A stretch of DNA of 64,000 bases from Tridacna crocea. Lineage: Eukaryota; Mollusca; Bivalvia; Cardiida; Cardiidae. The notes beneath the pieces were generated by a model. It did no database searches, had not been told where the DNA came from, and saw nothing but the letters and a program-made list of their open reading frames with translations. This document shows positions 600 through 61,950 of the stretch, piece by piece. Numbering within the stretch: the stretch's first letter is position 1; each line of letters starts with the position of its first letter. The stretch is from contig OX031070.1 of the NCBI GenBank assembly GCA_943736015.1, forward strand, positions 40,416,173 to 40,480,172, read 5' to 3'. The position numbers and the translations under genes are program-made.

Positions 600-829
600 T
601 TAACTCTTTATCAAACAACAAAATTTTAGACTTGTCATATAAAAGCATTTGCAGTTAACCAAAAAAAAAGTGTACCTCAAAAATTGAACCTTGACTTTAG
701 AAGAGTAGAAAACATTGTGAGAAAAGAAGAAAATGCTGGTTACCAGCATTTTCTCCTTTTCCCGCAATGTTTTCAGATGGCTCTTCCCTCTGGGTCGTAT
801 AAACCAGGGATTGTTTGGTAGAGGATTAA
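600..829 (-). mobile_element. Family A hairpin MITE (TTAA-flanked)
   Basis: TTAA at both ends; core GTTACCAGC palindrome at 712-776; the terminus that pairs with GATTGTTTGG is on the right, so the element is reversed. Lies just upstream of the IFT20 exon at 868. Confidence 0.85.
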
Positions 830-867
830 TCTTGATTCACTACATACCCTGATATCTTTCTTTTCAG

Positions 868-3800
868 AAATTGGTGATTTTCAGAAAATAGTAGGAACTT
901 TTATTGAAGTAGTAGATAATGTGGCAAAAGAAGTGGAAAAAGAGAAAATGAAGGTAAAACCCATTCTATAAATAAGCTTTTTACACCTGTGTAATGAACA
1001 ACATACAAAAATAATATTGGAAAAAGACCAACTGCCTGTAGCAGCTTTCCTGCGCTATTTTTCCATAATTGCCCGCCAGCTGACATTGTAACATACTGGG
1101 TGTCAAACAAGGGATTGCTGGTTTGAAACGCCAGCATTATTACTGGTAATTTTTTCGGAGGATTGATGATAGTCATCGAGACAGGATGTGTTCCTTGCTC
1201 ATTGCCGATCATTGTTTTGACGATGGTTAACCCTTTCCCAAACAATCCCTGGTTTCTACGGGTCTGGAATAGTAGCCTTTTGAAAATATTGTGGGAAAAG
1301 GAGAAAATGCTGGTAACCAGCATTTTCTCCTTTTCCCACAATGTTTTCTACCCTATCATAGACAGATTCGTCTTTTCAGCAAGAGTTGAATTGTTGTCTG
1401 CAAATGCTTTCAATTTGGTCTAGCCCAAAAGTTTGTCGTTTGGGAAAGGGTTAAGAGGAAAAGCAACCAGTGGCTGGGGAAAATATTGTCCAGAGTACTG
1501 GTGAAAGTAAACTCCAGGAAAACATAGGTGCACTTATTGCCAGGATAAAGCTGAACTCATGTTGAAATAGCTTTAACTACCATACAAATTCTACACACTT
1601 AATAATCATAGTGCATTATTTCTCTGGTCTTCTAGTGTTTGTCTGTTATGCAACCAGCATTTGCTCCCTTTTCCCACAATGTTTAGTACCCTTGTAAGAT
1701 AAATACATGTATCATTATCTGAGTCAAACTAAATTTATAGTGATGCAAATTCTTTCAATTTGGACAAGTCTATATTTTTTGTTGTCTGTTAATAGGATAT
1801 TTAAGCAATTTTATAATATAAATGTTTACACATTAATTCTTTGTTTTCTTTTATTTTTAGGCAATAGGTTCTAGAAATTTATTAAAGTCAATAGCCAAGC
1901 AAAGAGAAGCACAACAACAACAGTTACAGGCCCTGATTACAGAGAAGAAAATGCAGTTAGAAAGGCAAGCATGTTGTCTATAAGTACTGTAACCAAACTG
2001 CCAAGGTGTGCCAGGTCTAATACTTGCCCAAGGCACTCTTATTTTAGTATCCTTGGGCTAGTTGATTCAAGGATATACAGCCCCAGCACAGCCCCTGTTA
2101 AACTCTTAATACACATGAATAATTGAGCTGGTACACTGATAGGACTAAAATAATAATTATATCAGGGTAAAATACATGTACCATCTTATTGTTTAACTCT
2201 TTACCACACAATCCCTACTTTTAACAACCCTAAGGGAAAAAAAAGCCTTCGAAAACATGATAGGAAAATGAGAAAATGCTGGTAACCAGCATTTTCTCCT
2301 TTTCCCACATAGTTTTCTACCTTTCCCTGCAAAACTTTCAGTTTTTGAGTCAATTTAATTTTGTTGTCTGCAAATGCTTTCAATTTGAAGAAGTCTAAAA
2401 TACTATTGTTTGGTGAAGAGTTAAAAACAGATTTTCACTGTTACTGTTTCATAAATTTCCTAAAATGCTGAGTAACTGAAATAGACCTTTTCATAGGTAA
2501 TACAGGTTAAAAGAAAAGCCATTCTGTTCCTAGCTATTTTAAAGATATTTTGGCCAGAAAATGTTAACAAGCTAGCTTGTCTGTGCAGTCTAATGTTGAC
2601 CCACATTTTCTTGGAAACAACATGTTAATCCATTACCACACAATCCCTACTTTTGACGCCCCTGAGAAAGGAGTCTTGTGAAAACACTGTGGGAAAAGGA
2701 GAAAATGCTGGTAACCAGCATTTTCTCCTTTTCCCACAATGTTTTCTACCCTTCCCAGAACAAATTTCTATTTTTCAATCACTTTTATTTTGTCGTCTGC
2801 AAATGCTTTCAATTTGGACCAGTCCAAAATTTTCTCGTGTGGTAATAAGTTAAGTTTTACTTACCTCTGCATAAAATGTGTAGAGGATATTTTATTGATT
2901 CATTAATTTTTCCATGATAAAATCATTTCATCGAGTGAACCCCATCAATAATATTTTCAAGACTAGCGTAGTTGTCTGCGCATGTCATATTCTTCCAACG
3001 TTCAACTAGGTTGAATCTTTAAAGAATATGACAAGCGCAGACAACGAATCTCAGTACAGTTGTTTTGGGTAATTCCTGTGATATACCCTCCCCTTGCATA
3101 AGAACACATTACAATATTACATCAAGTGAAAGAAATATTGGGTTAATGGGCGTAAATTATATCACAATTCCCTCTGGTAGAATAACACATGCTATTAATC
3201 TACATGTGCTTTTGGCGGTACAACCGCCTTCTTCAAGTGTGATCCTGTGATAAAATGCCTCATTATATAAATCGACATCCACAAACCAATATGACTGACA
3301 AAGAGTTAAGAGCAATACAAGAACTAGTAATGTACAATTCGATTATAATACGTCCGGCAGATAAGGGTAGTGGTATTGCTATTATTGACACAGATGAGTA
3401 TATCAATAAAATAGAAAAGGAATTGCAGGATACAACAAAATACAAACAAATGGATTGAGAAGAAGTGAGGCATTCTATCACAGGATCACACTTGAAGAAG
3501 GCGGTTATACCACCGAAAGCTTGTGTTTATTTTATAATTAAACATTACATATCTCAAGAAGAGGATATATCATGGTTTGTAAACCTACATGTGGGTAACT
3601 AGTGTCAGGAACCTACTGTTTCCACCTTAAACTAACGAGTCAAAAATATGGAATTGGTATTTTTCACTGGTCGTAACCATGAAATATCCAACCATAATCC
3701 AGCATTATTTCTCATAAACTATCAAAAAGCATGACATAAGATGCTTTACATGATAGTACTTTCAGAGTTAAGGATCAAGAAGGAAAATCTCAAGATGTGA

Positions 3801-4625: not shown

Positions 4626-4629
4626 AGTG

Positions 4630-4854
4630 TTAACCCTCTACCACACAATACTAACTTTTAACACCCCTGTGAAAGAAGCCTGTTGAATTCATTGTGAGAA
4701 AAGGAGAAAATGCTGGTAACCAGCATTTTCTCCTTTTCCCACAATGTTTTCTTCCCCTTCTGACACAAATTTCAATTCTTCAGTCACATTCATTTTGTCG
4801 TTTGCAAATCCTTTCCACTTGGACCATTCTAAAATTTTGTAGTTTGGTAGAGTT
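4630..4854 (+). mobile_element. Family A hairpin MITE
   Basis: Left TTAA intact, right end GTTGA (decayed); perfect core hairpin. Confidence 0.85.
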
Positions 4855-5210: not shown

Positions 5211-5438
5211 TTAACCCTTTCCCAATAGTCCCTGGTTTTTACGCTCCCGAGATAGAAGATTTTTGAAAACACTGTGGGAAAAGGAGAAAATGCTGGTAAC
5301 CAGCATTTTCTCCTTTTCCAACCGTGTTTTTTACCCTGCTGGAAAAAAAAATTGATTTTTGAACTGCGTTTAAGTAGTCGTCTGCAAGTGCTTTGAATTT
5401 GGACCAGTCTGAAATTTTGTCCTTTGGTAAAGAGTTAA
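5211..5438 (+). mobile_element. Family A hairpin MITE, first of a tandem pair
   Basis: TTAA at 5211; its right TTAA (5435-5438) is also the left TTAA of the next copy. Confidence 0.92.
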
Positions 5439-5665
5439 CCCTTTCCCAAACAATCCCTGGTTTTTACGGGTCTGGAATAGTAGCATTTTGAAAACATTGT
5501 GGGAAAAGGAGAAAATGCTGGTAACCAGCATTTTCTCCTTTTCCCACAATGTTTTCTACCCCTATCATAGATAGAAATCATCTTTTCAGCAGGAGTTGAA
5601 TTGTCTTCTGCAAAATGCTTTCAATTTGGTCTAATTCAAAAATATGTCAATTTGGAAAGGGTTAA
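5435..5665 (+). mobile_element. Family A hairpin MITE, second of a tandem pair
   Basis: Shares TTAA 5435-5438 with the preceding element; intact hairpin; ends TTAA 5662-5665. Confidence 0.92.
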
Positions 5666-5795: not shown

Positions 5796-5910
5796 GCAAA
5801 CACTTTAACTTGTCACTTGATGAATATTCCGTCTCTTTACATGAATTTTTTATGGATCATCAATCAGTTTACAAGTTTATAGGATTTTTACTTTGGAACC
5901 TTGTTAACCC

Positions 5911-6136
5911 TTAACCCTTTCCCAAACAAGGTCTTGTTTTTACGTGTTTGGAGTAAAAGTCTTTTGAAAACACTGAGGGAAAAGGAGAAATTGCTCATAA
6001 CGAGCAATTTCTCTTTTTCCCAGTGTTTTTTGCCAGTTTAGATAATTTTCTGCCATTGTTATGAAAGTTAAAATTGTCATCTGCAAACTCTTTCAGTTTG
6101 GAAGAGTTTAAAATTTGTCGTTTGGGAAAGGGTTAA
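5911..6136 (+). mobile_element. Family C hairpin MITE
   Basis: TTAA ends, CAAACAAGGTCTTG terminus, core GCTCATAACGAGC flanked by GGAGAAATT. Confidence 0.88.
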
Positions 6137-6939: not shown

Positions 6940-7168
6940 TTAACCCTTTACCCCATAAGGCATTTCCATGGTATCTCTAATTGACCCTAAATAACAGCAA
7001 GGATGAAGCTGTTTCTTATGTGTATATGACACCTTTTGATTGCATAGAAAACATTGTGGCAAAAAGTGAAATTGCTTGTGATGAGCAATTTCACCTTTTG
7101 CCACAATATTTTCCAAATGCTCCTACAAGCAATACGTAGAAATGAGTATCTATGGAGTAAAGGGTTAA
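6940..7168 (+). mobile_element. Family B hairpin MITE
   Basis: TTAA, CCCTTTACCCCATAAGGCAT terminus, core GCTTGTGATGAGC in GTGGCAAAA/TTTTGCCAC arms, right terminus ATGGAGTAAAGGG, TTAA. Confidence 0.92.
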
Positions 7169-7380: not shown

Positions 7381-7609
7381 TTAACCCCTTTCCCAAACTA
7401 CAAATTTTACACTCTTCCAAACTGAAAGAGTTAGCAGATGACAATTTTAACTTTCATAACAATGGCAGAAAATTATCTGAATGGGCAGAAAACACTGTGG
7501 GAAAAGGAGAAATAGCTCATTATGAGCAATTTCTCCTTTTCCCACAGTATTTTCAAAAGACTTGTACTGCAGACAAGTAAAAATAAGGGCTTGTTTGAGA
7601 AAGGATTAA
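7381..7609 (-). mobile_element. Family C hairpin MITE
   Basis: TTAA ends; core GCTCATTATGAGC with ACTGTGGGAAAAGGAG arms; reversed relative to the copy at 5911. Confidence 0.88.
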
Positions 7610-7661
7610 GTCAATAAAATTCTTGTTTGATAAGGTTCACCCTGTACCACACAATTCTAAG

Positions 7662-7892
7662 TTGAACTCTTTACCACACAATCCAGACTTTTAACGGCCC
7701 TGAGAGAGAAGCCTTTTGAAAACATTGTGGGAAATGGAGAAAATGCTGGTAACCAGCATTTTCTCCTTTCCCGACAATGTTTTCTCCCCTGTCAAAGAAA
7801 AATTGCACCATTTGAGCCACACTGAAATTGTCATCCGCAAATACTTTCAATTTGGACAAGGTTAAAAGTTTTTTCGTCTGGTATAGTGTTAA
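7662..7892 (+). mobile_element. Family A hairpin MITE
   Basis: Left end TTGA (decayed TTAA), right TTAA 7889-7892, core GCTGGTAACCAGC; a further left-arm fragment follows to ~7950. Confidence 0.85.
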
Positions 7893-9029: not shown

Positions 9030-9257
9030 TTAATCCATTACCACGCAATCCCTACTTGTGACGCCCCTGAGAAAGAAGCCTTTAGAAAACAATGTGGGAA
9101 AAGGAGAAAATGCTGGTAACCAGCATTTTCCCCTTTGCCCACAATGTTTTCTACCCTTCACAAAACAAATTTCAAATTTTCAGTCACTTTTATTTTGTTG
9201 TCTGCAAATGCTTTCAATTTGGGCCAGTCTAAAATATTGTCGTTTGGTAATGGGTTA
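9030..9257 (+). mobile_element. Family A hairpin MITE
   Basis: Left TTAA, right TTAC, perfect core with one arm change. Confidence 0.88.
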
Positions 9258-9269
9258 CAGATGGCTAAA

Positions 9270-9407
9270 ATGATTTAATCAGTCTTTGTAGAAAATATTG
9301 TGGAAAAAGAAGAAAATGCTGATCATCAGCATTTTTTTCTTTATCCACAATATTTTCGAAAGCCTTCTTCAGGGTTGTTAAAACTCGGGATTGTATGGTA
9401 GAGTTAA
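9270..9407 (-). mobile_element. Family A MITE, truncated, with symmetric core change
   Basis: Core reads GCTGATCATCAGC, i.e. the usual GCTGGT...ACCAGC with the same substitution on both arms. Right TTAA 9404-9407. Confidence 0.8.
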
Positions 9408-10018: not shown

Positions 10019-10247
10019 TTAACCCTTTACCCCATAAGGCATTTCTATAGTATCTCTAATTGACCCTAAATAACAGCTAGGATGAAGCCATTTCTTATGT
10101 GTACATGACACCTTTTGATAGTGTAGAAAACATTGTGGCAACAGGTGAAATTGCTCGTCATGAGCAATTTCACCTTTTGCCACAATGTTTTCCAAAGGCT
10201 CCTACAAGCAGTGCGTAGAAATGAGTATCTATGGAGTAAAGGGTTAA
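10019..10247 (+). mobile_element. Family B hairpin MITE
   Basis: TTAA ends; core GCTCGTCATGAGC; left arm GTGGCAACAGG carries one mismatch to the right arm. Confidence 0.92.
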
Positions 10248-11466: not shown

Positions 11467-14400
11467 TCAAAATGTTGTTCCATTGAAGCCACAATCAGGT
11501 CTGGGAATGTCATAGAAGTTGATATAAAATCTGTAAATGATAAAAAAAAAAAAATGAGCAGTTACTTTAACCATTACAACCCTCCAATCACAATTTGTAT
11601 TCTTTAGTCATTTACCAGATAATGATATTTTAACCCTTTACTCCATAGATACTCGTTTTTATGCATTGGAAAACATTGTGGCAAAAGGTGAAATTGCTCA
11701 TGATGAGCAATTTCACCTTTTGTCACAATGTTTTTGATGCTATCAAAAGGTGTCCTATACACATGTATAAAAAAAGGTTTCATCCTTGCTGTTAATTTGG
11801 GTCAATTAGAGATACCATAGAAATGCCTTATGGGGTAAAGGGTTAAACTTGTCCAAAAGTAAAATTGTTTACAGACAATATATGTTGTAAAAACACTTGT
11901 AGTGAGATTTCTTTTGACGCAGTAGAAAATCCTGTGGAAAAATGAGAAAATGTTGGTACAAGCATTTTCTCCTTATTCCATGTTTTCGAAAACTTTTTTT
12001 TTCCTTTTTCCAAAGATTCATCAAAAATAAAAAAGACTATTTGTTAGAGGGTTAACTCTACCAGATTATAATATTTAGGGCTTGTGCATACTGAAAGCAC
12101 TGGATGTTAGACACTAACGTCTATGCGGTGTCCTATAAACATTGTGAATGTCAAAAGCGTTCATAACATTTTTACCCTTTCTCAAAGTAAATTCCATCGC
12201 ACTGAACACATTTCATGTGGCACTTAACCCACATATCATACACGTTTCTACACCATTCACTCTCTAGCTTCCTCATGACATTTAGTATTGCCCTTTCTAC
12301 ACCATTCACTCTCCCTTTTAACTTTTAATGGCTACTTTTCCCTTACTAATTGACGGATATTTTTCAAAATCAATCAGGTACAGGCTGCTGTACTGATGAT
12401 ATCAATACACAGTATGAGTTTCACGAAAATCTAACCAGAAATGCAGACTTTATTGTATAAGCAAGAATGTAAAATTTTCAATCTGAAATGACTACTTTTA
12501 CTTTATTGATTACCAGATTTTTTCCAAAATAAATATGAATCAAGCTGTTGATGACATAAGCAAACTGCAAGTTTCATGCAAATCTATTCACAAATGCAGA
12601 CTTTGGCCCATAACCAAGTCATAATAAATTTTCAACTTTAAATGGCTACTTTTCCTTTACTGATTGTCTGATTTTTTTGCAAATCAATAGAGTTTGAGCT
12701 ATTGATGATACAGAGAAACTGCAAGTTTCACGAAAGTCTGATCACAAATGCAGACTTTATCACATAAACAAGAACAAGAGGGCCATTATGGCCCTGAATC
12801 GCTCCATTCATGAAGTGTTCATAACCCTGAAAAAGAGGGCTTTTGAAAACAATGAACAATGTCGGGCAATAGAAGCAGGTTTTTTCATTGGCATAAAAGG
12901 TAAAGTTCTTGGAAAAAAAACCTGAATGACAGAAATCTTACATTGAAATTAAAATTCCAATATGTGTGCATAATTATTAACACCAAAATGAATCACTCTC
13001 TCCGAAAACTGAATAATTTCTATCAAAAAACTTCCACATCTGGCACCGATCATGTATCACTGCAGTTTGATAATCAAGGGAGGTAAATAGTAACAAGCTT
13101 TATTCTTTACAACTAGTCACTTCCCTTGATTAATGTTTAAATTGAAGTGACTACATATGAAAGCCCATGTTAAACTTGTGAGCCCTGGAATAGAGCCAAT
13201 TTTGACCCCAGGCCTATAATATGAAGACAGTTGTTAAAGGTCCATTAAATAAAGCTAAATGCCTAATGTAGTAGCCCTGGGCCTTGTGGTTTCAGAGAAA
13301 AAGATTTTTAAAAATGTTCATTTTTTTTTTTTCAGTTTTGTTGCCATGGCAACCAGAGATTTTGAGTGAATCAAATTCTTTTAACAAATTCTGAACAGGA
13401 CCATGGCAGGATTATTTCTGTGTTTCAGAGAAGAAGATGTTTGAAATAAAAGTTAACACGTGGACGCATGCACACACACACAACGGACACCGGGCCATGA
13501 CATAAGCCCGCTGGCCTTCAGCCAGTGGCGCTAAAAAGACTAACAGATGGACAGGCAACAAAAACCAAGTCATGACATAAGCTCTGCTGGCCTTCAGCCA
13601 GTACGCCTAAAAACATTCTACCTTTAAGTCAAATATGAGAAAGTTTGTTAAAACATTATCAAGAATAAGCAATGTCTACCTATTTTTAGGGATGCCGAGT
13701 TTAGTCTCAATGAAGTCCCCTATTGCGCTGGCATGTTTTTTATTCTTTTCTCCTAACGCTCCAATACTTGTCACCTGTGAGAACAAAACTATTGGAATGA
13801 ATGGTATTTTACGTTATCTGAATGAATGGTATTTTATACAATGTCATCATTATTTAGCCATACAAAATGACAGCAATACCTCATTTGTTTGTGTGTTTCC
13901 TAGGTCTTACCTTTTAAAACTCTTTACCACACGAGAAATTTAAGACCGGTCCAAATTGAAAGTATTTGCAGAGGACAAAATAATTATATGACTGAAACAT
14001 GGAAATTTTGTTTGGGAAGGATAGAAAACATTGTGGGAAAAGGAGAAAATGCTGGTTGCCAGCATTTTCTACTTTTCACAAAATGTTTTCAAATGGGTTC
14101 TTTCTCAGGGTTGTTAAAAGTCTGGATCATGTGGTAAACAATTAAGTACTGGTATCTTGTCCAAGGAGACTCCAATCAAAGACCCAATGCCTCTTTGGAG
14201 GATTAAATATGAGACTTACACACTACAAGTCCTACACCTTAACCACTGAAAAATCCACACATAGTCACTGAATTTGAACTGTTAGTAGATGTTTTTCAAC
14301 ATGTCTTGTTAATTCTGGTTTTTTCCAGTATTTTCTCCTTTTCCCTCAATGTTTTCAAAAGTTTTTTTCTCAGGGTTGTTAAAAACCGTCATTGTGTGGT

Positions 14401-16805
14401 AAAGGGTTTCCTTAGTGAATGTGCAGTAAAGTGAAATTACGTAAAATACACCTTTCAATAGAGCTGCGTGTAAGTTAACATCATAGTTAACTTATGGGTT
14501 AAATCTATACTAATCTTTATTAATTAACTATTAGATATATAGAAGTTATTATACATGGAAACCATCCATGCGATACTAATCACATTTCTTACTTTGTATA
14601 GTATACAGGTCATGACCCTGGCTTAATACGCCTTGACCCCCTGATCAATACAGTTGACCTCGTATCACTATTGATGACCTGCAACCAATAAAGAAATCCT
14701 TAAACATAATTGGTCAAAAGTTCGGTCGAATGAGTGTCTGCGCTTACTTTTAACCAATCACGTTCAAGGATTTCTGTATTGGTCGAGGGTCATCAATATT
14801 AATACAAGGTCAACTACTGACCGGAGGTCAAGTTGTTTTATGCCGGTGTCATGACCTGTATAGTTTAGTTTAAACATATTTATTTTACATCGATTGAGAA
14901 ACAAGTTCCTACAACTTATACTAATCTCTCTCGATTCTGCTTCCTGGGAACTACACCAGTACTCGCGCCGAATGTGTGGGCCATTGGAAAATCCCAAAGT
15001 TGACACCCGCTTCCAGGTATCGAACTCAGGACCCTTAGGTTATGAGGCTGACGCTCTGCCTCACGGCCACGGACACCACACGACCTGTATACTATACGAA
15101 GTAAGAAATTTGACTAGTAAACCCTATTTTCACTTCTCTTAGGTTGTCATATTGATTCTGGGCCAACAGTTAATTAATAAAAATGTCATTGATCTAGTGA
15201 TTTCGTATTGGCCCAATTACAGGTCCTCGTTCAGCTCTATTGGCCCAAAACCTTCAGGCCAATAAGGGTGACCTCGGACCTGTAAGAGGGCCAATATGAA
15301 ATCACTTGATTAATAACATTATAATACCAACTTGCAGTGAACCACAAGGATCTGTTGTTCCACCATGACACATCATCTGATCAGGAACCACTCTTGTTGT
15401 GACATACTGAAAGAAAAATTCAACTATTTACCAAAATTACAAATTTTCAGACTTAAAGTGCCCTTCACAACTTAGTCATTGCATTACTTTTTGTGGCCTG
15501 TGTAGGTCTGTGACCTGTGTAGATCAAGACAAAACTGCACAAAAAATGCACTTTTATCTTCACTATCTACTTTGCAAAAATGTTAAATACACGAGCAACC
15601 TAAATATTTTGTTTTAGATGGGTCTTATTCCAACACTGAAGCTACCATTTAAGTTTACTTGATACTCTAAAGGGTTAACAAGTTTCTAATAATATGATAT
15701 ACACCCTTTTTTTAATACAGACCTGCATAAATCTAAATCCAAAAGTGTGAAATCAAATGGATTTTGTTTGAAATATTGATCATGATTGAACTTTAAATTT
15801 GTGTAGATTTACATTTGAGACAAACACTTTTCTAATGCCTAGGTCACAAATAAAATGGGCGCTGGGAGATTTCTTCAAACTTTGCTGATTCAAAATTTTG
15901 AGACATTGTGCTTGCGCCATACGATTTTAAGACATTTTACTCAAGCAGTCATAAATGAAACGGGCATCGGATGGCAGTTGCTTGGGAAATGTCTGCGTGC
16001 CTTTTTCAGTTCAGAAAGGCACTGGGCGGCAACCGGACAGTCATCAGCCTGCGACCAGACGCCCAAAGAACGGCAACCTGACGGACATCTTTTGAACTCT
16101 TTGCCGCTGTCCGGCTAGTTACAAAGGCGTTTCATACGGTCCGAGGATGACACACCTCTGTAGCCACCTTTTGACCCACATAGTCCTCACTTTGCGACCT
16201 TACCCAGCACCCTGCTAATCGTAAATAGCAGCAGCTGCTATTGCATTTCTCTTCCTTCAGAGAGCAGCTTGCAATCTCTATTGATGAAGAAGCTGCAATC
16301 TCTATTAATGAAGAAGAAGATTCAACAGATTTTGTGGTAGTATAAGCGCCATTTTCGCTTCAGAACTGATAAGTTATAATGAGGTGAGACATCAATATAC
16401 ACTTTATAGTATAGTATATGTTTGCCATCTGGTCGCCATCCAGAAAGAATTAACAACATCAATTCCGCATGTCGATCTAACGGTCACTGGACAGTGACCA
16501 GATGAACATTTATAATCGGGCGGTGCCCGCTTTGGGTCTAACCGCACCTTGGTGGAGGCAGTTTGGTCACCGTATGGATGCAGTCTGGTTGCAAGGCAAT
16601 TTGGAGATAAACGTTTCATAAAAATCAGCCCTTCAGACTGAAGGTAATCTAGGACAAGAATCGCGAAAACCCATTGCAGCAACTGATCCACACTGACCTG
16701 TTCGGGTTTTCCCAGCTCTTCGGAAATAAATTTCGAAGCTTCAAGAAGGAAGTTTTCTGGGATTTTTTCCTTAGGTGTTGTCACGAAAATAGTAAATGTT
16801 GGCAT
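11467..16805 (-). CDS. MIF: Macrophage migration inhibitory factor (MIF), complete, 4 exons, 113 aa
   Basis: Exons on the minus strand: 16805-16698 (MPTFTIFVTTPKEKIPENF...GKPEQ), 15406-15332 (YVTTRVVPDQMMCHGG...GSLQ), 13774-13680 (VTSIGALGEKNKKHAS...GIPKN) and 11530-11467 (FYINFYDIPRPDCGFNGTTF-stop). Phases match and total 342 nt, 113 aa plus stop; MIF is normally 113-118 aa. Pro2 (the catalytic N-terminal proline once Met is removed), Lys33, Ser64-Ile65 and the Tyr95/Asn97 region of the tautomerase pocket are present. The vertebrate CXXC thiol motif is reduced to one Cys (Cys57; position 60 is Leu). The first exon is 36 codons, as in human MIF. MIF is a small cytokine-like tautomerase, in molluscs usually linked to innate immunity. 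Introns carry an A MITE, a B MITE, fold-back elements and a SINE. A family C MITE ends 147 bp upstream of the ATG. Confidence 0.95.
11630..11846 (-). mobile_element. Family B hairpin MITE in MIF intron 3
   Basis: TTAA ends; core GCTCATGATGAGC (symmetric); begins 100 bp upstream (in gene sense) of the last MIF exon. Confidence 0.92.
11900..12055 (-). mobile_element. Family A MITE relic
   Basis: GTGGAAAAATGAGAAAATGTTGG/CAAGCATTTTCTCC core, right TTAA 12052-12055, left end lost. Confidence 0.65.
12330..12775 (+). repeat. Tandem repeat, ~157-bp unit x3
   Basis: Three diverged units, each opening (A)TGRCTACTTTT(C/A)C and containing a (A/T)GTTTCA(C/T)G(A/C)AA(A/G)TCT and AAATGCAGACTTT block. The period resembles the ~160-bp monomers described for bivalve pearl/BIV160-type elements; a sequence comparison is needed to assign it. 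Confidence 0.75.
12776..13615 (+). repeat. Bivalve-type dispersed repeat
   Basis: Opens AACAAGAGGGCCATTATGGC and ends GCTGGCCTTCAGCCAGTACG; contains (T/C)TGTTGCCATGGCAACCAGAG and an ACACACACACAACGGACACC segment. Downstream continuation of the tandem units, all in MIF intron 3. Confidence 0.75.
13914..14145 (-). mobile_element. Family A hairpin MITE in MIF intron 2
   Basis: TTAA ends; core GCTGGTTGCCAGC; starts 140 bp upstream of exon 3 in gene sense. Confidence 0.87.
14150..14410 (-). mobile_element. SINE-like relic followed by family A half-element
   Basis: 14155-14265: CTTGTCCAAGGAGACTCC and a TTAACCACTGAA end, like the SINE at 62455. 14320-14410: right arm of a family A MITE. Confidence 0.5.
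14583..15112. mobile_element. Fold-back MITE split by a SINE
   Basis: The left end CATTTCTTACTTTGTATAGT is mirrored by ACTATACGAAGTAAGAAAT at 15091-15109. Internal arms also fold back (GAAATCCTTAAACAT near 14691 against CAAGGATTTCTG near 14765). A SINE at 14863-15081 interrupts the right end, with GACCTGTATA on both sides. In MIF intron 2. Confidence 0.8.
14863..15081 (-). mobile_element. tRNA-derived SINE with 10-bp target duplication
   Basis: Minus strand carries a tRNA-like head: GGCCGTGAGGCAGAGCG (A box) and GAGTTCGATACC (B box). Target duplication GACCTGTATA at 14853-14862 and 15082-15091. Confidence 0.8.
15182..15320. mobile_element. Small fold-back MITE next to MIF exon 2
   Basis: 45-bp arms 15182-15226 and 15276-15320 (AATGTCATTGATCTAGTGAT... 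and mirror), inner stem CTATTGGCC/GGCCAATAAG. Its right end is ~10 nt from the exon 2 splice donor (15331). Confidence 0.85.
15855..16400. other. MIF intron 1, unassigned
   Basis: Open reading stretches here resemble no known protein. A short direct repeat TGCAATCTCTATT(G/A)ATGAAGAAG occurs at 16270-16315. Confidence 0.4.
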
Positions 16806-16951: not shown

Positions 16952-17178
16952 TTAACCCTTTCCGAAACAAGCCCTGGTTTTTACGTGTCTGCAGTAAAAG
17001 TCTTTTGAAAACACTGTGGGAAAAGGAGAAATTGCTCGTAACGAGAAATTTCTCCTTTTCTCACAGTGTTTTCTACCCTTTTTGAGAACTTTCTGGCATT
17101 TTCTCCAACTCCAAAATTGTCGTCTGCAAACTCTTTCGGTTTGGAGGAGTCCAAAATTTGTCGCTTGGGAAAGGGTTA
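16952..17178 (+). mobile_element. Family C hairpin MITE upstream of MIF
   Basis: TTAA ends; CGAAACAAGCCCTGG terminus; core GCTCGTAACGAGA. It begins 147 bp upstream of the MIF start codon, so in the promoter or 5' leader. Confidence 0.9.
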
Positions 17179-18966: not shown

Positions 18967-19195
18967 TTAACCCTTTCCCAAATGACAAACTTTTTGACTA
19001 GACAAAATTCAAAGCATTTGCAGACGACAATTCAACTCTTGCTGAAAAGATGATTTCTGTCTATGATAGGATAGAAAACATTGTGGGAAAAGGAGAAAAT
19101 GCTGGTTACCAGCATTTTCTCCTTTTCCCTCGATGTTTTCAAAAGGCTACTATTCGAGATCCGTAAAAACCAGGGATTGTTTGGGAAAGGGTTAA
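18967..19195 (-). mobile_element. Family A hairpin MITE
   Basis: TTAA ends; near-perfect terminal inverted repeat and core. Confidence 0.92.
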
Positions 19196-19613: not shown

Positions 19614-19843
19614 TTAACCCTATACTAAACAATCCCTGGTTTTTACGACTCTCAGATAGAAGCCTTTAGAAATTATTGTGCGAAAAGGAGAAAATGCTGG
19701 TAACCAGCATTTTCTCCTATTCCCACGAAGTTTTCTATCCTGCTGGAAACAGATTTCAATTTTTGAGTTATATTCACTTTAATCATCTGCAAATGCTTTC
19801 AATTAGGACCTGTCTAAAATGTTGTTGTTTGGTAAAAGATTAA
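19614..19843 (+). mobile_element. Family A hairpin MITE
   Basis: TTAA ends; core intact with a few arm mismatches. Confidence 0.9.
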
Positions 19844-20036
19844 GGTTCCCAGACCAAGAACAAAGACACTAGCAACTCCAATAAGAGTCAAACCCAAAAC
19901 TTCATACTAGCTTATACTGTATACGGTAACCCTCTAAGCCTACCTTCCTGAAAAGTATGTAATATAGATAAAAAACACACCACAACAGACAAGACAATTT
20001 TGTTAACTCGAGTCTTAGATGAAGTCTTCAAGTTTC

Positions 20037-20439
20037 ACTTTTTACCACACAAAGAGATTTTAGACTTGTCCGAATTGAAAGCATTTGCTGATGACAGTTT
20101 CAATGTGACTCATATGAAATGATAGGGTTGAAAACATTTTGGGAAAAGCAGAAAATGTTGGTAACCAGCATTTTCTCCTTTTCCCACAATGTTTTCAAAA
20201 GCCATCTCTTTCACTCTTTACCAAATGACAAAATTTTAGACTGGCCCAAATTGAAAGGACTTGCAGACAAAAAAATAAACCTAACTCAGAAACTGAAATT
20301 TGTTTTCAGCAGGGTATAAAACACTGTGGGAAAAGGAGAAAATGCTGGTATACAAGCGTTTTCTCCTTTTCCCACAATGTTTTCCAAAGGCTTCTCTATA
20401 AGGGTCGTTAAAAGTAGGGATTGTGTGGTAAATGGTTAA
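20037..20439 (-). mobile_element. Two family A MITEs, head to tail
   Basis: 20037-20209 lacks its right terminus and abuts a complete copy 20210-20439 (left TTCA, right TTAA, core GCTGGTATACAAGCG). Confidence 0.85.
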
Positions 20440-20606: not shown

Positions 20607-20784
20607 TTAACCCTTTACCCCATAAGGCATTTCTATGGTATCTCTAATTGACCCTAAATAACAGCAATGATGAAGCCGTTTCTTATGTGTATATGAGACC
20701 TTTTGAAAACATTGTGGCAAAAGGTTTTCCAAAGGCTCCTACAAGGAATATGTAGAAATGAGTATCTATGCAGTAAAGGGTTAA
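20607..20784 (+). mobile_element. Family B MITE lacking the hairpin core
   Basis: TTAA ends and both B termini, but AACATTGTGGCAAAAGG runs straight into TTTTCCAAAGG: the palindrome centre is deleted. Shares TTAA 20781-20784 with the next element. Confidence 0.9.
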
Positions 20785-21014
20785 CTCTTTACTAAACGAC
20801 AAAATTTTGGACTCGTCCGAATTGAAAACACGTACTTGAAGACGACAAAATAAATGCGACTCAGAAATTGAATTTTGATTTTTGGAAGGGCAGAAAACAT
20901 TGTGGGAAAAGGAGAAAATGCTGGTTACCAGCATTTTCTCCTTTTCCCACAATGTTTTCAAAAGCTTTCCTTCTCAAGGTCGTCAAAAGTCGGGATTGTG
21001 TTGTAAAGAGTTAA
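20781..21014 (-). mobile_element. Family A hairpin MITE
   Basis: TTAA ends; perfect core; directly abuts the B element by a shared TTAA. Confidence 0.92.
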
Positions 21015-21037: not shown

Positions 21038-21266
21038 TTAACCCATTACCACACAATCCCTACTTTTGACGCCCCTGAGAAAGAAGCCTTTAGAAAAAAT
21101 TGTGGGAAAAGGAAAATATGCAGGTAACGAGCATTTTCTCCTTTACCCACAATGTTTTCTACCCTTCACAAAACAAATTTCAAATTTTCAGTCACTTTTA
21201 TTTTGTCGTCTGCAAATGCTTTCAATTTGGACTAGTCTTAAATTTTGTCGTTTGGTAATGGGTTAA
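21038..21266 (+). mobile_element. Family A hairpin MITE downstream of the sulfotransferase
   Basis: TTAA ends. Its TTTATT (21198-21203) is the first AATAAA on the minus strand after the sulfotransferase stop codon. Confidence 0.9.
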
Positions 21267-42645: not shown

Positions 42646-42872
42646 TTAACCCTTTTCCAAACAATCTCTGGTTTTTACCGGTCTTGCATAGTAGCCTTTT
42701 GAAAACATTGTGGGAAAAGGAGAAAATGCTGGTAAACAGCATTTTCTCCTTTGCCCACAATGTTTTCTACCCTATCATAGACAGAAATCATCTTTTCAGC
42801 TAGAGTTGAATTGTCGTCTGCAAATGTTTTCAATTTGGTTTAGTCCAAAAGTTTTATTTGGGAAAGGGTTAA
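42646..42872 (+). mobile_element. Family A hairpin MITE
   Basis: TTAA ends; core GCTGGTAAACAGC. Confidence 0.9.
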
Positions 42873-44554: not shown

Positions 44555-44783
44555 TTAACCCTTTCCCAAACAATCCCTGGTTTTTACGGGTCTGGAATAG
44601 TAGCCTTTTGAAAACATTGTGGGAAAAGGAGAAAATGCTGGTAACCAGCATTTTCTCCTTTTCCCACAAAGTTTTCTACCATGCTGGAAACAAATTTCAA
44701 TTTTTTGGTTTCGTTTATTTTGTCGTCTGCAAGTGCCATCAATTAAGACTGGTCCAAAATTTTGTCGTTTCGGAAAGGGTTAA
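44555..44783 (+). mobile_element. Family A hairpin MITE (copy-1-specific)
   Basis: TTAA ends, perfect core; lies in the segment absent from the paralogous copy at 52.8 kb. Confidence 0.92.
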
Positions 44784-46890: not shown

Positions 46891-47120
46891 TTCAACTCTT
46901 TACCAGACGACAAAGTTTTGACCTTGCCCAACTTGAAAGTATTTGGAGACAACAATTTAAATGCGACTCAAATAATGAAATTTGATCCTGATACGGTAGA
47001 AAATATTGTGGGAAAAAGAGAAAACGCTGGTTACCAGCATTTTCTCCTTTTCCCACAGTGCTTTCAAAAGGCTTCTTCCTCAAGGGTGTTAAAAGTCGTT
47101 ATTTAGTGGTAAAGGGTTAA
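46891..47120 (-). mobile_element. Family A hairpin MITE
   Basis: Left TTCA, right TTAA; core GCTGGTTACCAGC. Half-arm relics continue 47121-47265. Confidence 0.88.
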
Positions 47121-47395: not shown

Positions 47396-47626
47396 CTAAA
47401 CTCTTTACCAACAACAAAATTTTAGACTGGTCCAAATTGAAAGCACTTGCAGACAACAATATAACTGTATAACTGGAAATTTGAAATTTGTTTCCAGCAG
47501 GGTAGAAAACATTGTGGGAAAAGGAGAAAATGCTGGTTACCAGCATTTTCTCCTTTTCCCACAATGTTTTCAAAAGGCTTCTCCCTCAGGGTAATAAAAA
47601 CCAGGGATTGTACAGTAAAGGGTTAA
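47396..47626 (-). mobile_element. Family A hairpin MITE
   Basis: Left CTAAA, right TTAA; perfect core. Confidence 0.9.
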
Positions 47627-47672: not shown

Positions 47673-47901
47673 TTAAACCTTTACCACAAAATCCCAACCT
47701 TTAACAACCCTGTGAAAGAAGCAGTTTTAAAACATTATGGGAAAAGGAGAAAATGCTGATAACCAGTATTTTCTCATTTTCCCACAATGTTTGCTACCCT
47801 GCTGAAAACAAATTTCAATTTTTGAGTTACATTTATTTTGTTGTCTGCAAAAGCTTTCAACTTGGACCAGTATAAAATTATGTAGTTTGGTAAAGATTTA
47901 A
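47673..47901 (+). mobile_element. Family A hairpin MITE
   Basis: TTAA ends; core GCTGATAACCAGT. A reversed, decayed A relic follows at 47955-48117. Confidence 0.88.
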
Positions 47902-48445: not shown

Positions 48446-48795
48446 TTAAACTTTTACCACATAATCCCCTGTTTTATTAACCCTGAGGATGGAGGCTTTG
48501 GAAAATAATGAGGAAAAGGGAGAGAAACACTGGTAATTAGCATTTTCTGCTTTTCTCACGATGTTTTCTATCCATTCCAAGACATATCTCAACATTTGGT
48601 TGACATTTAATTTGTTGTCTGCAAATGATTTCAATATGTACTGGTCTAAAAAGCAGTATTCTCTCATTTTTCCACAATGTTTTCTATCTTTTCAAAGAAA
48701 ACTTTTCTACTCTTTGTACCATGTGATTCGTCTTCTGCAAATGCTTTCAGTTTTGACCATTCTTTATTTTTTTTTCATTGTAAAGAGCTAAAAGA
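48446..48795 (+). mobile_element. Family A MITE plus an extra right half
   Basis: 48446-48660 complete but diverged (core ACTGGTAATTAGC); 48660-48795 a second right half ending AAAGAGCTAAA. Confidence 0.75.
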
Positions 48796-48922
48796 AACTA
48801 CCGGTATTAACCTCAGTGAATACCTACCGTAATACTTTTCCTGTTTTCCTTTCAGTCATTATTTGCCTTTTCCCTACTCAAATACCGGTATTTAGCCACA
48901 TATTGTTAATTTGCAATATATC

Positions 48923-49151
48923 TTAACTCTTTACCAGATTACAAAATTTTGGACTAGTCCAACTTGAAAGCATTTGCAGACGACATAATAAGCATGACTC
49001 AAAAACTGAAATTTCATTTGGAAAGGGTCGAAAACATTGTGGGAAAAGGAGAAAATGCTGGTAACAAGCATTTTCTCCTTTTCCCACAAGGTTTTTAAAG
49101 GTTTTCTTTCTCGGGGTTGTCAAAAGTCGGGATAGCGTGTTAAAGAATTAA
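48923..49151 (-). mobile_element. Family A hairpin MITE
   Basis: TTAA ends; core GCTGGTAACAAGC. Confidence 0.92.
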
Positions 49152-49172: not shown

Positions 49173-49401
49173 TTAATTCTTCACCAAACAACAAAATTCT
49201 AGACTTGTCCAAACTGAAAGCATTTGCAGATAACAAAATAAACAAATCTCAAAAATTGAAATTTGTTTTCAGCAGGGTAGGAAACACTGTGGGAAAAAGA
49301 AAACATGCTGGTTACCAGCATTTTCTTCTTTTCCCACAACGTTTTCAGAAGCCTTCTGTATCAGAATTGTTAAAAGTCGGGATGGCTTGGTATTCTGTTA
49401 A
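49173..49401 (-). mobile_element. Family A hairpin MITE
   Basis: TTAA ends; core GCTGGTTACCAGC; left arm has an insertion/deletion (GGGAAAAAGAAAACATG). Confidence 0.9.
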
Positions 49402-49582: not shown

Positions 49583-49810
49583 TTAACCCTTTACCAGACA
49601 AAAAAATTTTGGCCTTTGTCCAAATTGAAAGCATTTGCAGTCGACAATTTCAAAGTGGCTACAATTGTGCAAATTTTGTTTGATAGGGTAGAAAACATTG
49701 TGGGAAAAGGAGAAAATATGTGGTTATCAGCATTTTCTCCTTTTCCCACGTTTTCCAAAGGCTTCTTTTCCAGGAGGATCAAAAGTCGGCATTTTGTGTT
49801 AAAGGGTTAA
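49583..49810 (-). mobile_element. Family A hairpin MITE
   Basis: TTAA ends; core altered to TGTGGTTATCAGC. A decayed A fragment precedes at 49452-49545. Confidence 0.9.
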
Positions 49811-49843: not shown

Positions 49844-50061
49844 TTAACCCTATTCCAAACGACAAAATTCGGTCCAAATTGAAAGCACTTGCAAAAGACA
49901 AAATAAAAACTTAATTGAAATATGTTTCCAGCAGGGTAGAAAACATAGTGGGAAAAAGGAGAAAATGCTGGTAACCAGCCTTTTCTCCCTTTCCCATAAT
50001 GTGTTCAAAAGGCTTCTATCTCAGGGTCGTACAAACCAGGGACTGTTTGGTAAAGGGTTAG
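49844..50061 (-). mobile_element. Family A hairpin MITE
   Basis: Left TTAA, right TTAG; core GCTGGTAACCAGC. Confidence 0.9.
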
Positions 50062-50703: not shown

Positions 50704-50936
50704 TTAACTTATTACTATACAACAATGTATTAGGCTTGTCCAAATCGAAAGCATTTTAAGACGACAAGATAAAAGTGACTAAAAATTTGAAATTTGTTTT
50801 GTGAAGGGTAGAAAACATTGTAGGAAAAGGAGAAAATGCTGGTAATAATTATCAGCATTTTCTCCTTTTCCGACAATGTTTTCTAAAGGCTTCTTTCTCG
50901 GTCGTCAAAAGTAGGGATTGTGTGGTAATGGGTTAA
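50704..50936 (-). mobile_element. Family A hairpin MITE
   Basis: TTAA ends; core carries a small central insertion (GGTAATAATTATC). A half-element follows at 50995-51080. Confidence 0.9.
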
Positions 50937-51373
50937 GTATCTTGTACGCAACAAGCCATCATTTTTGAAGACATTCATTGTTTTCAAACCACCATAATAA
51001 ATGGCATTTTTTCCTTTTCCAACAAGGTTTTTCTACCCTTTTTATGGCAAATTTCATCATTTCAACCACATTGTATTTTACACATAAAGAAATCATCTAC
51101 ATGTATCCATGGGCTGACAATGCTTCAGAACTCTGTGGCCAAAACAAAACATACAAAATGTTTTCTTCAGTCTGATAGTATGGTTTGATATCATGTTATA
51201 GAACTGACTTTAGATTTGTTGGTCAATAAGAAAAGGATCTAAGCCTACATTCGATCCAAAGGGGAGCTTCGATGCCATTTTTTTAAATGTTTCTCCTCTC
51301 CAAGACCCAGTTACAAAATGACACCTGGGAAATTCTTCAGTCTACAGGTATATACAAAGCCTAGTGGTTGCAT

Positions 51374-53574: not shown

Positions 53575-53623
53575 TATATGATTATATTTCTTATACATTT
53601 TTATTGAATAATTCTCATGCAAT

Positions 53624-53860: not shown

Positions 53861-53873
53861 GTTGATTAAGAAT

Positions 53874-59504: not shown

Positions 59505-59730
59505 TTAACCCTTTCTCAAACAATCCCTGGTTTTTACGGGTCTTGAATAGTAGCCTTTTGAAAACATTGTGGAAAAAGGAGAAAATGCTGGTAACCAGCA
59601 TTTTCTCCTTTTCCCACAATGTTTTCTACCCAATCATAGACAGAAATCTTTTTAGCAAGAGTTGAATTGTCGTCTGCAAATGCTTTCAATTTGGTCTAGT
59701 CCAAAAGTTTGTCGTTTGGGTAAGGGTTAA
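59505..59730 (+). mobile_element. Family A hairpin MITE
   Basis: TTAA ends, near-consensus; first A copy after the 54.4-59.5 kb gap. Confidence 0.92.
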
Positions 59731-60614: not shown

Positions 60615-61045
60615 TCTAACAAGAGGCCCATTATGCCTCTGTACATTGCTCCACTGGCTTTTTAACCATACAAATTGGCCCATTATGCCTCTGTACATTG
60701 CTCCACTGGCTTTTTAACCATACAAATTTGAAGTGATTGAGGTCCATAAGATAAAGCTAGATGCCAAATTTGGTAGCCCTGGGCCGCTTATGGTTTCAGA
60801 CAAGAAGATTTTCAAAGACGATCAAATTTTTTCGGTTTTGTTGCTATGGCAACCAGCTTTTTAATTCTTTCAAGAATTTCTGGAGAAGACAATAGCAAGA
60901 TCGTTTCTGTGAGGTTTCATCAAATGAATGGGTAGTTTCAGTGAAGAAGTTTGAAAAAAAAGTTAACACACAGACACACATGTACAACGGGCACCAGGCC
61001 ATGACATAAGCCTGCTGGCCTTGGGCCAGTGGAGAAAAAAATGTC
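60615..61045 (+). repeat. Bivalve-type dispersed repeat with a 52-bp internal duplication
   Basis: AACAAGAGGCCCATTATGCC start; 60626-60677 repeated at 60678-60729; TTGCTATGGCAACCAG; ends GCTGGCCTTGGGCCAGTGGA. Confidence 0.78.
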
Positions 61046-61344
61046 TAAGGTTGTTCATAAAAACTTGTGAAATCAAATGCAGCCACCAAAGTTTCTTTGT
61101 ATGCTGCTTCAAGTTAAAGCAGAATTAGGGTAAAAGCCTTGTCCTGTTTTAAATTGAGGCAACAGGCATTAGACAATATAACATAATATCCCATCACTTC
61201 CTGTGGTAGAGTATAAAGAACTAGTGGCCCTTAAGAGCCAGAACTGCTCTACTTGCAGTGTATCTACTTATTTTCTTGCAAACTGTCAAAGTTAAAAAAA
61301 AAAAACATAAAAACAAATGAAATTTTCATCATGTAAACAAGAAA

Positions 61345-61950
61345 TGGAAATTTTCAACATGAAATGGCTACTTTTCCGATATTGTTTGTTTCATTTTTTT
61401 TTCAAAACCAATAGGGTTAAAGCTATTGATAAAACAAACTTTGCAAGTAGATCTACACAGAAATCTGACAGATAATGCATTCTTTATCAAGTAAACAAGA
61501 AATAGCTATTTTCAAATTAAAGTGGCTACTTTTCCCTTACTGTTTGTTTGTTTGTTTGTTTTTTTTTTCAAAATCAATCAGCTTGAAGCTGTTGATGAGA
61601 TAAACAAATTGTGCAAGTTTCACGAAAATCCAACCAAAAATGCTGACCAAATCATGTAAATACGAAATGGAAATTTTAAATTTTAACTCATTACCAAACA
61701 ATAATATTTAATTTATAGACTTGTCCAAATTGAAAGCATTTGCAGACGACAGAATAAAAGTGACTGAAAATTTGAAATTTGTTTTGTGAAGGGTAGAAAA
61801 CATTGTGGGAAAATGAGAAAATGCTGGTAACCAGCATTTTCCCCTTTTCCCATAATGTTTTCTAAAGGCTTCTTTCTCAGGGGCATCAAAAGTAGGGATT
61901 GTGTGGTAATGGGTTAACTGGCTACTTTTCCCATATTGTTAGGACATAAA
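61345..61950 (+). repeat. ~165-bp tandem units split by a MITE
   Basis: Units begin TGGCTACTTTTCC at 61356 and 61523; a third beginning, at 61919, comes directly after the MITE that ends at 61917. Same type as 12330-12775. Confidence 0.75.
61683..61917 (-). mobile_element. Family A hairpin MITE inside tandem units
   Basis: TTAA ends; core GCTGGTAACCAGC; interrupts the tandem unit just before CTGGCTACTTTTCC. Confidence 0.92.

What the first reader, a model, noticed from the sequence alone, without database searches (positions are those of the whole stretch)
600..61917. Three TTAA hairpin MITE families whose core stems differ by paired, compensatory changes
Families A, B and C share one core plan: GAAAACA(T/C)TGTGG then AAAAGG then GAAA to a GCT(G/C)GT centre and its mirror. 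A and B differ at four stem positions (GGG/GCC-side base, GGAG/GGTG, AAAAT/AAATT, CTGGT/CTCGT); A and C differ at three. Each difference is present on both arms, so pairing is kept although sequence changed. Within A, the copy at 9270-9407 has GCTGATCATCAGC, again changed on both sides. Within B, GCTCGTGACGAGC, GCTCATGACGAGC, GCTCATGATGAGC and GCTCGTCATGAGC all occur. The paired state may be selected (RNA or cruciform recognition) or produced by arm-to-arm conversion during hairpin replication. The B-core variants could also be independent CpG decay; the A/B/C differences are not explained by that.
Basis: partly seen in the sequence, partly recalled or inferred. Interest (0 to 1): 0.75.

Follow-up and report, generated by a model that had tools for sequence, protein, structure and literature searches.

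The report
Conserved palindrome inside TTAA mini-transposons
A very abundant family of short jumping DNA elements in an animal genome carries a 67-letter mirror-image core that changes far less than the rest of the element, and whose lasting changes are mostly made on both halves, which suggests that the core helps the element to move.

Summary
The window holds about 90 copies or fragments of one superfamily of ~220-bp TTAA elements with piggyBac-type CCCTTT ends. Each full copy has a 67-nt near-perfect palindrome between unequal, non-palindromic flanks. The A, B and C cores differ at pairs 8, 14, 21, 26 and 31, always on both arms; chance match 1.7e-8. One one-sided difference was missed: most B copies have G.T at pair 13.

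The genome holds 592,368 exact 13-nt arm matches. Among 161 full copies from 314 kb, three A lineages share an identical core while their flanks differ at 21 to 40 of 159 sites. In a segmental duplication the core decays like other DNA (4.0% versus 4.9%, p=0.40). Large clades carry two-sided changes (8, versus 1 one-sided); terminal branches are mostly one-sided (399, versus 20).

So pairing is not protected in ordinary copies. It is kept in lineages that multiply. Best reading: the core is a DNA site used in mobilisation, perhaps a transposase-dimer site, with occasional arm-to-arm template switching. RNA-level selection is not supported. The partner transposon was not found. Closest known: coral CMITEs.

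The parts
600..827 (-). full-length MITE, subfamily A1; core 708-774
1230..1453 (+). full-length MITE, A2; core 1282-1348
2197..2423 (+). full-length MITE, A1; core 2251-2317
2627..2854 (+). full-length MITE, A1; core 2680-2746
4632..4850 (+). full-length MITE, A1; core 4685-4751
5215..5438 (+). full-length MITE, A1; core 5265-5331
5438..5664 (+). full-length MITE, A2 exemplar; perfect A core 5490-5556
5909..6135 (+). full-length MITE, C; core 5966-6030 with a 2-nt deletion in one arm
6941..7167 (-). full-length MITE, B; core 7047-7113
7385..7610 (-). full-length MITE, C; core 7488-7554
7666..7891 (+). full-length MITE, A1b; core 7718-7784
9032..9257 (+). full-length MITE, A1; core 9085-9151
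9207..9403 (-). diverged A1b-like MITE; core 9291-9357 with four two-sided pair changes (6, 14, 20, 32)
10020..10246 (-). full-length MITE, B exemplar; core 10126-10192
11631..11845 (+). full-length MITE, B; core 11669-11735
13918..14139 (-). full-length MITE, A1; core 14024-14090
16952..17178 (+). full-length MITE, C; core 17007-17073
18968..19192 (-). full-length MITE, A2; core 19074-19140
19616..19844 (+). full-length MITE, A1; core 19669-19735
20211..20436 (-). full-length MITE, A1; core 20317-20384, 1-nt centre insertion
20608..20783 (-). B element that lost the apex and most of one arm of the core (42-nt and 9-nt deletions)
20781..21010 (-). full-length MITE, A1; perfect core 20893-20959
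21040..21266 (+). full-length MITE, A1; core 21093-21159
21349..21575 (-). full-length MITE, A3; perfect core 21456-21522
22506..22730 (+). full-length MITE, A1; core 22559-22625
23656..23883 (+). full-length MITE, B; core 23710-23776
24979..25171 (-). A1 element with a 39-nt deletion of the core apex
25513..25740 (+). full-length MITE, A1; core 25566-25632
27346..27572 (-). full-length MITE, C exemplar; perfect core 27451-27517
27607..27706 (-). left half of a C element ending just past the palindrome centre; with its flank a tandem duplicate of the neighbouring copy
36683..36907 (+). full-length MITE, A2; core 36735-36801
37022..37105 (+). half element (A2) ending at the palindrome centre
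14322..14407 (-). half element ending at the palindrome centre
40657..40747 (-). half element ending at the palindrome centre
39347..39564 (-). full-length MITE, A1; core 39447-39513
41141..41367 (+). full-length MITE, B; core 41195-41261
42649..42871 (+). full-length MITE, A2; core 42701-42767
44558..44782 (+). probable chimaeric MITE: left flank nearest A2 (0.02), right flank nearest an A1 copy (0.19), core 44610-44676 with one change
46893..47118 (-). full-length MITE, A1; core 46999-47065
47397..47624 (-). full-length MITE, A1; perfect core 47505-47571
47676..47897 (+). full-length MITE, A1; core 47728-47794
48451..48651 (+). full-length MITE, A1, diverged core
48922..49149 (-). full-length MITE, A1; core 49030-49096
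49175..49394 (-). full-length MITE, A1; core 49280-49346
49584..49807 (-). full-length MITE, A1b
49846..50059 (-). full-length MITE, A1
50704..50934 (-). full-length MITE, A1, 6-nt insertion at the palindrome centre
51178..51195 (.). site without an element (now TTGA) that matches the TTAA site of an A2 copy in the duplicate L014
54070..54296 (-). full-length MITE, B; core 54176-54242
59508..59729 (+). full-length MITE, A2; core 59560-59626
61683..61915 (-). full-length MITE, A1; core 61796-61862

Best explanation
These are non-autonomous piggyBac-type (TTAA) mini-transposons whose 67-bp palindromic core is a cis-acting DNA site that a copy needs in order to multiply well. SHOWN: TTAA flanks and CCCTTT ends; one A2 copy present on only one side of a segmental duplication, so this family has been mobile; a core that changes far less than the flanks between lineages; mostly one-armed decay of ordinary copies, at the neutral rate in the duplication; two-sided core changes in the large lineages. 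INFERRED: copies with a symmetric core of the right sequence are mobilised better, so lineages that succeed carry matched arms. The simplest molecular reading is symmetric binding by a transposase dimer or tetramer, as the piggyBac C-terminal domains bind a palindrome in the transposon end. Template switching between the arms probably supplies some two-sided changes in one step.
For: Core nearly frozen in sources: A1, A2 and A3 consensus cores differ at 0/67 sites while flanks differ at 40 (A1-A2), 21 (A1-A3) and 31 (A2-A3) of 159; A1-F 4/67 versus 78/159; C-F 2/67 versus 73/158; A1-B 10/67 versus 85/159. Over 12,558 pairs of copies the core follows the flank when flanks are young (0.061 versus 0.080) and lags when they are old (0.119 versus 0.325). 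Neutral in situ: in duplicated segments core 4.0%, element flank 4.7%, other DNA 4.9%. Source versus in-situ contrast: clades of 5 or more copies 8 two-sided, 1 one-sided; terminal branches 20 versus 399, p=1e-9 (145 copies, support 0.7); 6 versus 1 if the pair 26 and 31 changes are counted once, p=2e-7. A DNA element with no RNA intermediate whose copies decay after insertion points to a DNA-level role in mobilisation (inference). piggyBac ends hold a 19-bp palindromic repeat bound by two C-terminal domains, and an added dimer site raised integration about two-fold (PMC7351741, passages). The arm holds a stretch CCTTTTCCCACAAT like the left terminal repeat of A1 (20/2000 shuffles as good) and A2 (26/2000). 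118 piggyBac transposase matches (some are pieces of one gene) lie in the same genome.
Against: No autonomous partner with these ends was found: six of the eleven transposase loci fetched had recognisable ends, with other TIRs, and no core arm inside. One-sided states do multiply a little: 13 in clades of 2 and 6 in clades of 3-4, and the main B lineage carries G.T at pair 13. A core variant with mismatches at pairs 28 and 32 occurs in 22559 and 47728, and nearly so in 49584, whose flanks differ by 24-30%. The likeness of the arm to the terminal repeat fails for the right end of A1 (636/2000) and A2 (160/2000) and for both ends of B and C (102 to 915 of 2000). Within flank clusters the core is less diverged than the flanks, by all changes (165/4602 versus 658/10757, p=4e-11, source and in-situ changes mixed; 40/1200 versus 133/2713 in the window, p=0.03) and by singletons (70/4006 versus 233/9383, ratio 0.70, p=0.009), so decay in situ may not be wholly neutral.
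Confidence: 0.55

Rival explanations
1. Arm-to-arm homogenisation: template switching or cruciform repair copies one arm onto the other, so a mutation on one arm becomes two-sided in one step without selection for symmetry.
For: The mechanism is described in other systems (PMC8794818 abstract and one section; PMC8604942 abstract: arm homogenisation plus spacer inversion). The centre base is changed to its complement 4 times among 41 cores against 0.39 expected (P=7e-4). In the larger set 8 of 11 centre changes are complement-type (P=0.002); that list took A as unchanged in B and missed one B copy, and the full count is 9 of 13 (P=0.002), or 8 of 12 with a duplicated copy removed (P=0.005). Two-sided changes exceed shuffles: 12 versus 5.2 in copies with at most 7 changes (3 of 500 shuffles as high), 40 versus 26.4 in all 185 (0 of 500). 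Four of the five family changes are pair flips with no wobble step.
Against: In situ the process is weak: 399 one-sided versus 20 two-sided terminal changes, and no pair changed on both sides among the core differences of the duplicate pairs. It does not explain why the core sequence changes so little between lineages. The in-situ excess is not seen in the ungapped set with at most 7 changes (4 versus 2.5, 124 of 500 shuffles).
Confidence: 0.22
2. The core is homogenised between elements by ectopic gene conversion or break repair started at the unstable palindrome, so the core stays alike while flanks drift.
For: A probable chimaera joins an A2 left flank to an A1-like right flank through the core. 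Clean breaks cluster at the centre, 10 of 31 within 12 nt (p=0.005); 15 of 67 internal hit ends within 10 nt (p=0.004). A two-mismatch core variant recurs in different flank backgrounds. Core divergence within clusters is below flank divergence.
Against: The family core changes map to flank clades (B, B with F, C), so cores are not freely exchanged, though one mosaic core was seen (L007 near 6686). Duplicated copies show no significantly younger core.
Confidence: 0.12
3. The RNA hairpin is selected, for example as a microRNA-like or siRNA source.
For: The three consensus cores fold as RNA into a 32-bp hairpin of -52 to -55 kcal/mol, z -12.7 to -15.4. A lasting one-sided source state, pair 13 in B, is a G.U wobble on the element strand.
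Against: No Rfam match in the window. Copies lose pairing in the duplication at the neutral rate. The loop is 3 nt. Four of five family changes are pair flips that did not go through G.U in one step.
Confidence: 0.06
4. No constraint: the families arose separately and the arms evolve independently.
For: Within family A the arms decay almost independently (96 one-sided cells, 7 two-sided paired and 2 two-sided unpaired in 32 copies; 4.28 two-sided expected by chance).
Against: Probability 1.7e-8 for the family differences; shared layout and slowly changing core.
Confidence: 0.03

Closest known systems
CMITEs of Acropora corals (Wang et al. 2010, PMC2872659; abstract, passages, part 1 of 2 of the results, and the discussion seen)
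   Same: TTAA duplications, CCCTTT-type ends with CC[C/T]T motif, several families that share a conserved internal region whose role is unknown; tandem arrays are reported there, and the window has a tandem array of half cores.
   Different: CMITEs are about 100 bp with a 75-nt internal region; here about 220 bp with a 67-nt core and long flanks. A search of that paper's main text found no 'palindrom' or 'hairpin', and its sequence figure is not held, so I cannot say whether its core is palindromic or related.
piggyBac transposon ends (PMC7351741 and PMC11707139, passages only)
   Same: Unequal left and right ends; a palindromic internal repeat bound by two C-terminal domains of the transposase; TTAA target.
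   Different: There a 19-bp palindrome near each end of piggyBac; here one 67-bp palindrome in the middle, with no proven transposase.
Template-switch maintained RNA hairpins (PMC8794818; abstract and one section seen)
   Same: Compensatory changes and loop inversions in stems.
   Different: Those are RNA genes; here a non-coding transposon whose ordinary copies decay.
Made1/hsa-mir-548 (PMC1784062, search listing with the start of the abstract)
   Same: Short inverted-repeat element able to form a hairpin.
   Different: There the elements are described as giving microRNA genes; here no evidence of RNA use.

Membership tests
piggyBac/TTAA MITE | TTAA target site duplication | tested here: met
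   34 of 43 full copies (8 of 51 left out) have TTAA at both ends and 43 of 43 at one end or both, background 0.12 per 18 nt; an A2 copy in L014 is flanked by TTAA and the matching window site has no element, there TTGA
piggyBac/TTAA MITE | short terminal inverted repeats starting CC[C/T]T | tested here: met
   left ends CCCTTTACCACAC (A1), CCCTTTCCCAAAC (A2, C), CCCTTTACTCCAT (B); the A1 right end consensus reads CTCTTT; motif definition from PMC2872659
piggyBac/TTAA MITE | short, non-coding, high copy | tested here: met
   consensus 220-223 bp without TTAA; 592,368 exact arm matches genome-wide; of ten window ORFs tested against Pfam one matched, a sulfotransferase fragment outside the elements
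piggyBac/TTAA MITE | ends shared with an autonomous piggyBac element | tested here: inconclusive
   118 PF13843 matches in the genome; 11 loci read, 6 with ends, TIRs CCCTTTATATAC, CCCATTTATGCCT and CCCTAGTCATGC (one end of L035 CCCTTGTCATGC), not the MITE ends
Kolobok-type TTAA MITE | Kolobok transposase partner and ends | not tested
   no search for a Kolobok transposase was made
coral CMITE | internal region more conserved between families than the TIRs | tested here: inconclusive
   the core is far more conserved than the flanks, but the first 12 nt also stay alike: 8-12 of 12 between consensus pairs, so core exceeds the ends in some pairs (A2-B) and not in others (A2-C)
coral CMITE | length about 100 bp with 75-nt internal region | tested here: not met
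   220-223 bp, 67-nt core
coral CMITE | same internal sequence | not testable with these tools
   the figure with the CMITE sequence is not held
MITE-derived microRNA hairpin | known RNA family or small RNA reads on the stem | tested here: inconclusive
   no Rfam match at gathering score in the window; small-RNA data not available

The most novel reading that the evidence does not exclude
The core is recognised in its folded, cruciform or hairpin form by the transposase or a host factor during mobilisation, so that selection on multiplying copies keeps base pairing itself, making this a DNA transposon with a selected internal DNA hairpin. Breaks, indels and base inversions at the centre would be the side effects of that folding.
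Probability: 0.18. Interest if true: 0.82.

Novelty: new variant of a known kind. Interest (0 to 1): 0.58.

Why it matters
Why some MITE families keep a conserved internal region was left open for coral CMITEs (PMC2872659). Here a genome with perhaps half a million copies or more, a segmental duplication as a neutral yardstick, and natural two-sided variants make that question testable: the constraint seems to act on copies that multiply, not on copies that sit. If the core drives mobilisation, it would help to explain how a 220-bp element came to make up about an eighth of 200 kb of sampled sequence. The case also warns that compensatory changes, usually read as proof of RNA structure, can arise in an element with no evident RNA role.

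Tried and rejected
Rejected: RNA gene of a known family (no Rfam match in the window). Rejected for the elements examined: core arms as internal repeats of the autonomous transposon (none inside the L028, L031-L033, L035 or L036 elements); not excluded for a partner not yet found. Rejected: the core flips freely relative to the flanks (centre A in 105 of 114 A-type copies). Weak leads: a gradient of fewer changes towards the apex in the window (thirds 53/43/18) shrank in the larger sample (0.042, 0.035, 0.029). The apparent third pair type at pair 31 in L015:480 sits in a CpG on both arms and can be explained by decay. Pair flips are 4 of 5 family changes, but complement-type changes are also 20-44% of flank consensus differences, so the excess is slight (P=0.03 at 30%).

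Led nowhere: exact core patterns in viral contigs and genome contigs gave no match. Three short arm strings were looked for in paper texts; one paper, on diatom biosilica, holds one of them. Ten paper searches listed no paper that, from its title and the start of its abstract, describes these elements or a conserved palindromic MITE core; figures and most subscription journals are not covered.

Limits: searches used 41 of 49 ungapped cores (those over 11 changes and the copy at 5966 left out); one search used 43 of 51 full copies, 70 of 161 copies fell in clusters of three or more; one search left out the L014 copies and poorly covered ones (145 of 161 used). In one search the gap handling seems to have marked many ungapped cores as gapped, so the 'ungapped' rows are an incomplete subset. 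The F group held two A1 copies by mistake; one search repeats it with three F copies. The duplication test used six aligned segments and left out one of 88% identity. The 20 stretches were chosen by hand at round positions, not at random. The pair 26 and 31 changes count twice in the '8' (once for B with F, once for C). The likeness of the arm to the terminal repeat was tried for eight ends and was good in two.


Full report
What is there. The window comes from an animal-type genome (IFT20 exons, Pfam E 1e-33, and a probable MIF exon, E 0.002, below the curated cut-off). It is a stretch of a 1.05-Gb assembly in 31 contigs. About 90 copies or fragments of one element superfamily lie in its 64 kb. 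A complete copy is TTAA, a left flank of 51 nt that begins CCCTTT, a 67-nt palindrome (33 pairs and one centre base), a right flank of about 105 nt that ends in the inverted terminal repeat, and TTAA. Of 43 full copies (8 of 51 left out), 34 have TTAA at both ends.

If the arms changed independently, five matched and complementary changes would have probability 1.7e-8. With 18 B copies, however, the B consensus also has one one-sided pair, G.T at 13.

Scale. The 13-nt arm motif occurs exactly 592,368 times in the genome, against 69 for the same pattern read backwards. In 20 stretches of 10 kb there were 142 non-overlapping hits covering 26.2 kb, 13%; stretches varied from 0 to 22 hits. Extrapolated by me, that is about 0.7 million copies and fragments. 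The window is denser than average (891 exact arm matches per Mb, genome 565).

The core changes little in sources. From 314 kb I aligned 161 full copies. Flank clusters A1 (31 copies), A2 (12) and A3 (6) have identical core consensus, 0/67, while their flanks differ at 21 to 40 of 159 sites. A further family F (3 copies) has flanks nearly as far from A1 as those of B (78 and 85 of 159), yet its core differs from A at two pairs and from C at one. Pairs of copies with young flanks have nearly equal core and flank distance (0.061 and 0.080); with old flanks the core lags (0.119 and 0.325).

Decay after insertion. The window from 46.65 to 54.2 kb, with a piece at 58.4-58.9 kb, is duplicated in inverted orientation on another chromosome (L014), at 93-96% identity for most segments. 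Between the duplicates the core differs at 23/572 sites, element flanks at 123/2640, other DNA at 180/3677; core versus other p=0.40. No pair is changed on both sides among the listed core differences. In L014 an A2 copy lies at a TTAA where the window has no element (..GTATGGTTTGATATCATG.., site now TTGA): the copy went in after the duplication, or was excised cleanly from the window side; either way the family has been mobile. Against full neutrality, the core is less diverged than the flanks within clusters: 165/4602 versus 658/10757 (p=4e-11, which mixes source and in-situ changes), and singletons 70/4006 versus 233/9383 (p=0.009). The singleton deficit is largest at A positions (0.012 versus 0.026).

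Two-sided changes belong to successful lineages. On a flank-only tree (145 copies, L014 left out, support 0.7) changes of core pairs were: clades of 5 or more, 8 two-sided and 1 one-sided (plus one that restores pairing); clades of 3-4, 0 and 6; clades of 2, 0 paired two-sided, 2 unpaired two-sided and 13 one-sided; terminal branches, 20 two-sided, 19 two-sided unpaired, 399 one-sided and 9 restoring. Large clades versus terminal branches: p=1e-9, and the result holds at support 0.5 and 0.85. Counting the shared pair 26 and 31 changes of B/F and C once gives 6 versus 1 (p=2e-7). With L014 left in and clades of 3 or more, the count is 8 versus 7 including one restoring change (p=4.5e-7), or 6 versus 6 in the strictest form (p=2e-5). 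One-sided states therefore do multiply for a while, but the lineages that grew large are nearly all two-sided.

Signs that the palindrome is physically unstable. Clean breaks of partial copies cluster at the centre: 10 of 31 within 12 nt (p=0.005). Centre insertions occur in 20211, 21721, 50704 and 59983, and two copies (20608, 24979) lost the apex. Copy 44558 has flanks nearest to two different subfamilies on its two sides. The centre base is replaced by its complement more often than expected (4 versus 0.39 in the window, P=7e-4; 9 of 13 centre changes in the larger set, P=0.002, or 8 of 12 after removing a duplicate, P=0.005; the narrower list gave 8 of 11). These fit occasional hairpin formation and template switching, which in other systems homogenises arms and inverts spacers (PMC8604942, abstract; PMC8794818, abstract and one section).

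Mechanism. A MITE moves as DNA and needs no RNA of its own (established knowledge). A core that decays in ordinary copies and changes little in multiplying lineages is best explained as a cis-acting DNA site for mobilisation. piggyBac transposases bind a palindromic internal repeat with two C-terminal domains, and an added dimer site raised integration about two-fold (PMC7351741, passages). A stretch of each arm resembles the element's left terminal repeat in A1 and A2 (about 1% of shuffles as good), but not the right one, and not in B or C. A symmetric protein site would give matched changes on both arms without any folding; a folded site would give the same. My data do not separate the two. 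The genome has 118 piggyBac transposase matches, many with long open frames, but none of the six loci with recognisable ends carries the MITE ends or a core arm; five further loci gave no ends. The partner is therefore unknown, and Kolobok was not tested.

Comparison. Coral CMITEs (PMC2872659) are the closest known case: TTAA, CCCTTT ends, and an internal region conserved between families, with unknown role. They are half the length, and a search of the text finds no mention of a palindrome. I call the present elements a new variant of piggyBac-type MITEs. What seems new is the palindromic symmetry of the conserved core, the separation of source-level constraint from decay in ordinary copies, and the scale; I know of no description in print, within the ten searches named above.

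Noticed in passing
window 46653-54212 and 58418-58851 versus L014 (G000:C9:14000001-14010000): Inverted segmental duplication between two chromosomes, 93-96% identity for most segments, with an A2 element present on one side only.
   Followed up: partly
window 30702-31152: Inverted repeat with 219-nt arms, 97% complementary, 13 nt apart; no MITE hit lies there.
   Followed up: no
window 33771-34059: Inverted repeat with 90-nt arms, 100% complementary, 109 nt apart.
   Followed up: no
window 46698-46885: Tandem array of three half-core units of roughly 70 nt, each ending at or near the palindrome centre.
   Followed up: partly
window 45975-46130 and 53627-53811: Two related copies of an older element with a shorter palindromic apex and similar outer flanks, probably one insertion later duplicated.
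   Followed up: no
A1 versus A2 flank consensus: Flank differences between source lineages are rich in complement-type changes (16 of 36) against 25 of 133 in situ; not explained.
   Followed up: no
window 22204-22503, minus strand: Fragment with a sulfotransferase domain (Pfam Sulfotransfer_1, E 2.6e-10).
   Followed up: no
L014 7515-7742 versus window 48922-49149: Six substitutions within 10 nt at the core apex between duplicate copies, a mutation cluster at the palindrome centre.
   Followed up: partly
L007 core near 6686: Mosaic core with an A/C-type left arm and a B-type right arm (mismatch at pair 21), a possible intermediate.
   Followed up: no
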